This document shows, piece by piece, positions 35,990-36,332 of a DNA stretch of 64,000 nucleotides. Within the stretch, counting starts at the first letter, position 1; every line of letters starts with the position of its first letter. The stretch comes from Candidatus Rubrimentiphilum sp. Lineage in GTDB: Bacteria; Vulcanimicrobiota; Vulcanimicrobiia; Vulcanimicrobiales; Vulcanimicrobiaceae. The notes below the pieces were generated by a model, which had not been told where the DNA came from, searched no databases, and saw only the letters and a list, made by a program, of their open reading frames with translations. The position numbers were made by a program, and so were the translations under genes. The stretch is taken from positions 248,001 through 312,000 of the forward strand of contig DASTDE010000003.1 of NCBI GenBank assembly GCA_035710515.1, in the 5' to 3' direction.

Positions 35990-36289
35990 TGGGACGGCCG
36001 AGACTTGAACTCGGACGGCCTTTCGGCCAGCAAATTTTCGCACCACTATAGCTTTCGCTACCGCCCTTTTAGGCGTTTGATGGTCCGGACTGTGCCTTGA
36101 CCTTATGGCTTACGCCACGTAGGCCGCGCCCGTCCAGTCTCTACACCTTCCGCGCTTGCGGCTTGGCTCGGCGTTGGCACTTGCACATTCTGCAAAAGCG
36201 TTCACCGAATTTGAGCGCATCCCGCGGGCGGTTTCCCGGTCCGCGGCTCCAACGAAGTCTGCTGTGTCTACCTGTTCCACCACCGTCCC
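35990..36289 (-). tRNA. tRNA-Leu(UAA) interrupted by a group I intron
   Basis: The 5' exon is 36289-36255 (35 nt: acceptor GGGACGG, D arm, anticodon stem GCAGA, then CTT). The 3' exon is 36038-35990 (49 nt: AAAA, TTTGC, variable arm GGCC-GAAA-GGCC, T arm CCGAG-TTCAAGT-CTCGG, acceptor CCGTCCC, A). Joined, they give an 84-nt tRNA with loop CTTAAAA, anticodon UAA, and a long variable arm as leucine tRNAs have. CCA is not encoded. The break lies between U34 and A35. Confidence 0.95.
36039..36254 (-). ncRNA. Group I intron (self-splicing ribozyme, IC3-like), 216 nt
   Basis: It follows a 5' exon ending in U and ends in G, as group I introns do. The conserved core can be read on the minus strand. 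The P element is in CTCAAATTCGGTGAACGC, and GCCGAGCCAAGCCGCAAG is the Q region. GAGACTGGACGGG is the R region (36129-36147 with flanks), and AAGGCACAGTCC is the S region (36087-36098), followed by a GTAGCGAAAGCTA P9-type hairpin. Length, position and core wording closely parallel the cyanobacterial tRNA-Leu(UAA) intron. There is no room for a homing endonuclease. Confidence 0.92.
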
Positions 36290-36295
36290 ATAACG

Positions 36296-36332
36296 AAGGG
36301 GCGGTCGACTCTTATTGAATGGAGCGCCCCTT
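36296..36332. other. Hairpin upstream of tRNA-Leu
   Basis: AAGGGGCG (36296-36303) and CGCCCCTT (36325-36332) are perfect 8-base arms with a 21-base loop, followed rightward by TTACTG. It lies between tRNA-Leu (leftward) and the phosphoribosyltransferase gene (rightward). Its role is unclear; apart from this hairpin, 36290-36387 shows nothing else I can name. Confidence 0.4.

What the first reader, a model, noticed from the sequence alone, without database searches (positions are those of the whole stretch)
35990..36289. Group I intron in tRNA-Leu(UAA) outside the usual hosts
A 216-nt intron splits tRNA-Leu between U34 and A35, precisely the site of the ancient intron of cyanobacteria and plastids. 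The flanking exons rebuild a perfect 84-nt tRNA. P, Q, R and S core segments and a GCGAAAGC-type P9 hairpin are readable, and some (GGTGTAGAGACTGGACGGG, AAGGCACAGTCC) nearly copy the cyanobacterial wording. If the host is not a cyanobacterium, this is either a lateral gain or an old shared trait. No ORF is inside, so it cannot home by itself.
Basis: partly seen in the sequence, partly recalled or inferred. Interest (0 to 1): 0.78.

Follow-up and report, generated by a model that had tools for sequence, protein, structure and literature searches.

The report
Self-splicing intron inside bacterial tRNA-Leu
The only gene found for the tRNA that reads the leucine codon UUA in this bacterium (phylum Eremiobacterota) is split by a small catalytic RNA intron of a known kind, which its relatives have inherited and lost many times and whose closest outside relatives found here sit in the same tRNA gene of phages.

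Summary
On the minus strand, exons 36289-36255 and 36038-35990 join into an 84-nt tRNA-Leu(UAA), and a 216-nt insert sits exactly between U34 and A35. It is a group I intron: a P1-P9 fold with the P3/P7 pseudoknot is supported by 20 two-sided covarying pairs (99.1% of cells paired; 0/500 shuffles). Two congeners show the same locus without it, joined at precisely these bases. No other UAA tRNA-Leu was found in the genome, so it must splice for UUA to be read. The host belongs to Eremiobacterota (Vulcanimicrobiota, WPS-2). About 50 of 149 genomes of the phylum carry the intron, 43 have a contiguous gene, none has both. All 34 sampled introns form one clade: old, mostly vertical inheritance with many losses, not a fresh gain. 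'Outside the usual hosts' is overstated: many Betaproteobacteria, some plasmids and phages have the same site interrupted. The core is nearer to bacterial and phage tRNA introns than to plastid trnL; cyanobacterial sequences could not be fetched. The nearest outside relative is a tRNA-Leu intron of a 595-kb phage that carries an HNH endonuclease. Verdict: new member of a known kind, with an interesting phage lead.

The parts
36255..36289 (-). tRNA-Leu(UAA) exon 1 (35 nt, acceptor 5' strand to U34)
   Evidence: contiguous with exon 2 in congeners G001 and G003
36039..36254 (-). group I intron, 216 nt, ends in the terminal G (omega-G, 36039)
35990..36038 (-). tRNA-Leu(UAA) exon 2 (49 nt, A35 to the discriminator A73; CCA not encoded)
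36247..36257 (-). P1: exon CUU (36257-36255) with guide GAG (36249-36247), U.G pair at the 5' splice site
   Evidence: GACTT exon end and intron GAGCC invariant in all 21 aligned members
36222..36246 (-). P2 hairpin with GAAA loop (36235-36232)
   Evidence: 6 pairs with two-sided changes across helices 1 and 2
36213..36218 (-). P3 5' strand
   Evidence: pairs with 36131-36126; invariant in the clade
36168..36208 (-). P4 and P5 (P4 strands 36208-36203 and 36173-36168; P5 pair 36199/36177 covaries G-C, U-A, C-G)
36145..36167 (-). P6 and P6a
   Evidence: three P6a pairs with two-sided changes
36135..36139 (-). P7 5' strand (guanosine-binding helix); partner 36092-36088
   Evidence: invariant in the clade
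36126..36131 (-). P3 3' strand
36099..36125 (-). P8 with P8a; CCUACG...AUAAGG, resembling the 11-nt GAAA-tetraloop receptor
   Evidence: three P8a pairs with two-sided changes; receptor reading from sequence resemblance
36088..36092 (-). P7 3' strand (in AAGGCACAGUCC)
36042..36084 (-). P9, P9a and P9b (GCGAAAGC hairpin, GAAA 36056-36053)
   Evidence: 7 pairs with two-sided changes across helices 11-13

Best explanation
This is a genuine, endonuclease-less group I intron (IC3-like) in the only tRNA-Leu(UAA) gene found in an Eremiobacterota genome. After transcription the RNA folds (P3-P9 core, P2/L2 and P9b/L9 GAAA loops). The guide GAG pairs with exon CUU so that a U.G pair marks the 5' splice site. 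A guanosine bound in P7 attacks there, and the freed exon then attacks after the terminal G, joining U34 to A35 and giving a functional tRNA that reads UUA. The intron has passed mainly vertically since the common ancestor of at least two families of the class and has been lost precisely many times. Shown: site, fold, covariation, empty alleles, no second UAA gene found, single clade. Inferred: the two-step chemistry and splicing in the cell, loss rather than repeated gain.
For: Joined tRNA scores 120.2; the intron-allowing scan puts a 216-nt insert after base 35. 99.1% of 1082 cells paired, 20 two-sided pairs, covariation 0.291 against 0.109 shuffled and at most 0.066 when slid. Rfam group I match, sub-threshold but with the core aligned. 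Congeners G001 and G003 have the same locus with both flanks syntenic and the exons fused exactly. The other Leu tRNAs found are CAA, UAG, GAG and CAG only, while long ORFs of the window use UUA. About 50 intron genomes and 43 contiguous genomes in the phylum do not overlap. 34 Eremiobacterota tRNA-Leu introns form one clade, 100/99. On rpoB, well-supported branches force at least 12 changes of state. The host topology costs 39 log units on the intron data against 146-267 for shuffled hosts.
Against: No RNA data. The Rfam score is below the gathering cut-off. P3 and P7 never vary inside the clade, so they are supported by position and conservation, not covariation. The host topology is formally rejected for the intron (AU 0.002; one host gene, weak nodes) and the distance correlation is weak (r 0.20, 127/5000 permutations as high), so some transfer within the phylum is possible. 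Parsimony counts cannot themselves tell gain from loss.
Confidence: 0.9

Rival explanations
1. A recent lateral gain in the window's organism or genus, from a proteobacterium, cyanobacterium or phage.
For: Very patchy presence, with some congeners lacking it. Phages carry close relatives at the same site.
Against: The introns of the genus nest inside one clade spanning two families of the class. Introns of congeners are 83-85% identical over the 300-nt query and group by genus. The host topology fits far better than shuffles. In genus g1 the rpoB tree makes one loss cheaper than two gains.
Confidence: 0.06
2. The Eremiobacterota lineage of this intron came from, or shares a donor with, phage-borne tRNA-Leu introns carrying a homing endonuclease; the endonuclease was then lost and the intron became a vertically inherited resident.
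For: Phage LR756511.1 (595 kb) has a tRNA-Leu(UAA) split at U34|A35 by an intron with a 189-aa HNH ORF. Without the ORF columns it is the sister of the Eremiobacterota clade, 100/98, and shares the P3/P8 wording GGGATGCGCTCAAA and GGGCGCGACCTA. Viral contig L233 (tRNA-Leu) is its closest match, 81%.
Against: One or two phage rows, no cyanobacterial introns in the tree, only 203 columns, and the bootstrap had not settled. The direction of transfer is not determined; phages may have taken it from bacteria. All tRNA-Leu introns together are not one clade (p-AU 0.0002).
Confidence: 0.3
3. Ancient shared trait: the intron descends vertically from a common ancestor with the cyanobacterial/plastid trnL intron.
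For: Identical site U34|A35 and the same overall plan; [quoted passage not shown]
Against: In deep lineages of the phylum no intron of this clade was found. The core is closer to proteobacterial and phage introns than to the plastid primer sites. Site identity can follow from reuse of one target. Cyanobacterial introns could not be tested.
Confidence: 0.15
4. A degenerate, non-splicing insertion in a pseudogene.
For: Low Rfam score.
Against: Intact exons and compensatory changes throughout; no second UAA gene found while UUA codons are used; no relative carries both forms.
Confidence: 0.02

Closest known systems
tRNA-Leu(UAA) group I introns of Betaproteobacteria (for example L118 Azonexus, L098 Burkholderiaceae PBA, L088 Dechloromonas)
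   Same: Same gene, same site, similar length (213-214 nt in these three), same core, no ORF
   Different: About 65-70% identical over the core; a separate clade; Burkholderia and Paraburkholderia versions are longer (244-326 nt)
tRNA-Leu(UAA) intron of phage LR756511.1 (L262) and viral contig L233
   Same: Same gene and site; sister (L262) and near relative (L233) in the tree; same P3/P8 wording in L262
   Different: L262 holds an HNH endonuclease ORF in the P6 region; the genomes are phages
tRNA-Ile(CAU) introns of the Azoarcus type (here Azonexus L114, Polynucleobacter L043 and others)
   Same: Core wording CAACGCCGAGCCAAG and GAAGGTGTAGAGACTNGACGG, small size
   Different: Other tRNA, inserted after U36 of CAU, a separate clade
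Cyanobacterial and plastid trnL intron
   Same: Same gene and site, same overall architecture (from knowledge of the family)
   Different: 5/17 and 6/22 mismatches at the plastid P6 primer sites; cyanobacterial sequences could not be fetched
Gammaproteobacterial tRNA-Leu(UAA) intron of Pseudomonas isolate D0715 (Vepritskiy et al. 2002, from memory; paper not held)
   Same: Same gene; recalled P8 motif CCUACG...UAUGG also present in several members here
   Different: Recalled as 231 nt, other phylum; not compared directly

Membership tests
Group I introns | Conserved core P3-P4-P6-P7-P8 with the P3/P7 pseudoknot | tested here: met
   all core helices paired in 21/21 or nearly; P3 and P7 invariant, so not covarying
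Group I introns | U at the 5' splice site paired with G of the guide; terminal G of the intron | tested here: met
   exon ...CUU, guide GAG and last base G in all 21
Group I introns | Match to Rfam RF00028 | tested here: inconclusive
   25.4 bits, E 1.5e-4, below gathering score 50
Group I introns | Self-splicing with guanosine | not testable with these tools
   needs in vitro transcription with GTP and Mg2+
IC3 subgroup | Small tRNA anticodon-loop intron with GNRA loops at L2 and L9 and a receptor-like P8 | tested here: inconclusive
   features read on the sequence; no subgroup model was available
tRNA-Leu(UAA) introns | Insertion between U34 and A35 | tested here: met
Cyanobacterial/plastid trnL intron lineage | Groups with cyanobacterial trnL introns in a tree | not tested
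   no cyanobacterial intron could be obtained; the plastid primer comparison speaks against special closeness
Mobile (homing) group I introns | Encodes a homing endonuclease | tested here: not met
   longest open stretch 60 codons

The most novel reading that the evidence does not exclude
Phages with their own tRNA-Leu(UAA) genes act as carriers of endonuclease-armed tRNA introns and seeded the resident intron of Eremiobacterota (and perhaps of other phyla) at the same anticodon site; this would answer how an endonuclease-less tRNA intron crosses phyla.
Probability: 0.3. Interest if true: 0.7.

Novelty: new member of a known kind. Interest (0 to 1): 0.42.

Why it matters
It places the tRNA-Leu(UAA) intron in a phylum for which no report was found in the searched library. 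It gives a natural experiment of repeated, exact intron loss within genera, and it explains why automated annotation (default ARAGORN, Rfam gathering cut-off) would report an essential tRNA as missing. The phage relatives bear on an old question, how tRNA introns without endonucleases spread: a 2014 review stated that all phage introns known then were in protein-coding genes (PMC3984707).

Tried and rejected
L261 (Gordonia phage) fell inside the Eremiobacterota clade in the first tree as a long branch and was left out of the second with two other long rows. L323, a viral contig matching GGGATGCGCTCAAA, has no intron: chance match. The MFE fold alone (z -2.1) cannot hold the pseudoknot and was not used as main evidence. 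The Vepritskiy 2002 paper is not held.

Full report
What is there. The finding lies on the minus strand. Exon 1 is 36289-36255, the intron 36254-36039, exon 2 36038-35990. The joined exons form an 84-nt tRNA-Leu(UAA) (ARAGORN 120.2); with introns allowed, ARAGORN finds the gene as tRNA-Leu(taa) with a 216-nt intron after base 35, that is between U34 and A35. The default scan misses it and Rfam's group I model scores 25.4 bits, below its gathering score but with the core aligned. The intron holds no open stretch above 60 codons.

Structure. 21 complete relatives from the same class were aligned. A hand-built group I structure (P2 to P9 with the P3/P7 pseudoknot) pairs in 99.1% of 1082 cells. 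20 pairs change on both sides, and the covariation score is 0.291 against 0.109 in shuffles and at most 0.066 when partners are slid. P1 pairs exon CUU with intron GAG, and every member ends in G. P3 and P7 do not vary inside this clade, so they rest on conservation. P8 reads CCUACG...AUAAGG in the window and ...UAUGG in several relatives, resembling the 11-nt GAAA receptor; P2 and P9b end in GAAA loops. The docking is inferred.

Natural controls. Two congeners lack the intron: their exons are fused at exactly U34-A35, and the flanks on both sides are syntenic with the window. Among 149 genomes of the phylum, 55 have a model hit, five of these only in other tRNA genes, leaving about 50 with the tRNA-Leu intron, one of them cut by a contig end. 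43 have a contiguous tRNA-Leu(UAA), after setting aside six genomes whose only hits read TTAGAATC or TTAGGATC, and no genome is in both sets. The window's genome (96% complete) has Leu tRNAs CAA, UAG, GAG and CAG but no other UAA was found, while long ORFs of the window use UUA codons. Splicing is therefore needed for UUA decoding.

Host. Contigs of three relatives match by exact length the named records QHBJ01000015.1, JACRTZ010000048.1 and JAFANK010000167.1 of Eremiobacterota/Vulcanimicrobiota. No paper on tRNA introns in this phylum was found (one unrelated hit).

Distribution elsewhere. Joining exons of the hits in silico shows tRNA-Leu(UAA) introns at the same site in Burkholderia, Paraburkholderia, Trinickia, Dechloromonas, Azonexus, Rhodoferax, Polaromonas, Niveibacterium and others, with relatives in tRNA-Ile(CAU) and tRNA-Arg(CCU). 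So the trait is not confined to cyanobacteria. The tRNAscan-SE authors also report fMet and Ile2 group I introns in bacteria (PMC8450103).

History. In trees of about 100 introns, the 34 Eremiobacterota tRNA-Leu introns form one clade (99/100 with one long-branch intruder; 100/99 after removing long rows). Holding all tRNA-Leu introns together is rejected (p-AU 0.0002); Eremiobacterota plus betaproteobacterial ones is not (0.115). On an rpoB tree of 60 genomes the intron state changes 19 times, at least 12 forced by well-supported branches. The host topology is 39 log units worse than the free intron tree, against 146-267 for shuffled hosts. It is still formally rejected (AU 0.002), and the distance correlation is weak (r 0.20). 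The best reading is mainly vertical descent from an ancestor of the two families with many exact losses, and perhaps some transfer.

The phage lead. 46 viral contigs carry the core pattern, in tRNA-Leu(UAA), Lys(UUU), Thr(UGU), Arg(UCU) and CAU genes. The annotated-phage collection gave LR756511.1, a 595-kb phage whose tRNA-Leu(UAA) is split at the same site by an intron with a 189-aa HNH endonuclease ORF. With the ORF columns left out, this intron is sister to the Eremiobacterota clade (100/98), and viral contig L233 is its closest match at 81%. The 2014 review said phage introns were then known only in protein-coding genes (PMC3984707). The direction of transfer is open, and cyanobacterial introns are missing from the tree.

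Verdict. A real, ordinary-sized, endonuclease-less group I intron: a new member of a known kind in a new phylum.

Noticed in passing
L262 840-1660 (phage LR756511.1): 595-kb phage tRNA-Leu(UAA) split by a group I intron of 700 nt holding an HNH ORF whose stop codon lies in the conserved GGTGTAG core
   Followed up: partly
L213-L258 (IMG/VR contigs): Group I introns in viral tRNA genes for Leu(UAA), Lys(UUU), Thr(UGU), Arg(UCU) and CAU tRNAs; L243 and L228 carry two each
   Followed up: partly
L259 2458-2678 (plasmid pCTX-M3, NC_004464.2): Unannotated tRNA-Leu(UAA) with a group I intron about 0.7 kb from aac(3)-IId; 1262 plasmid records, mostly enterobacterial, match the window intron in part, only this one and a Bradyrhizobium plasmid (L260) were examined
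   Followed up: partly
L193-L197, L330: Some Eremiobacterota carry a different group I intron in tRNA-fMet (inserted after C34 in L330), with no homing endonuclease ORF recognised
   Followed up: partly
L198 (G059:C26): tRNA-Tyr(GUA) group I intron in a deep lineage of the phylum
   Followed up: no
L115 4806-5466, similar introns in L045 and L095: Chloroflexi tRNA intron overlapped at its 5' side by an ORF of the PD-(D/E)XK family (PDDEXK_5), with a weak match to solved structure 2ost, a putative endonuclease
   Followed up: partly
window 36290-36330: Inverted repeat GGGGCG...CGCCCC just upstream of the tRNA gene, conserved in congeners with and without the intron
   Followed up: no
L129 2046-2336: Fibrella rubiginis (Bacteroidota) tRNA-Arg(UCU) carries a related group I intron
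   Followed up: no
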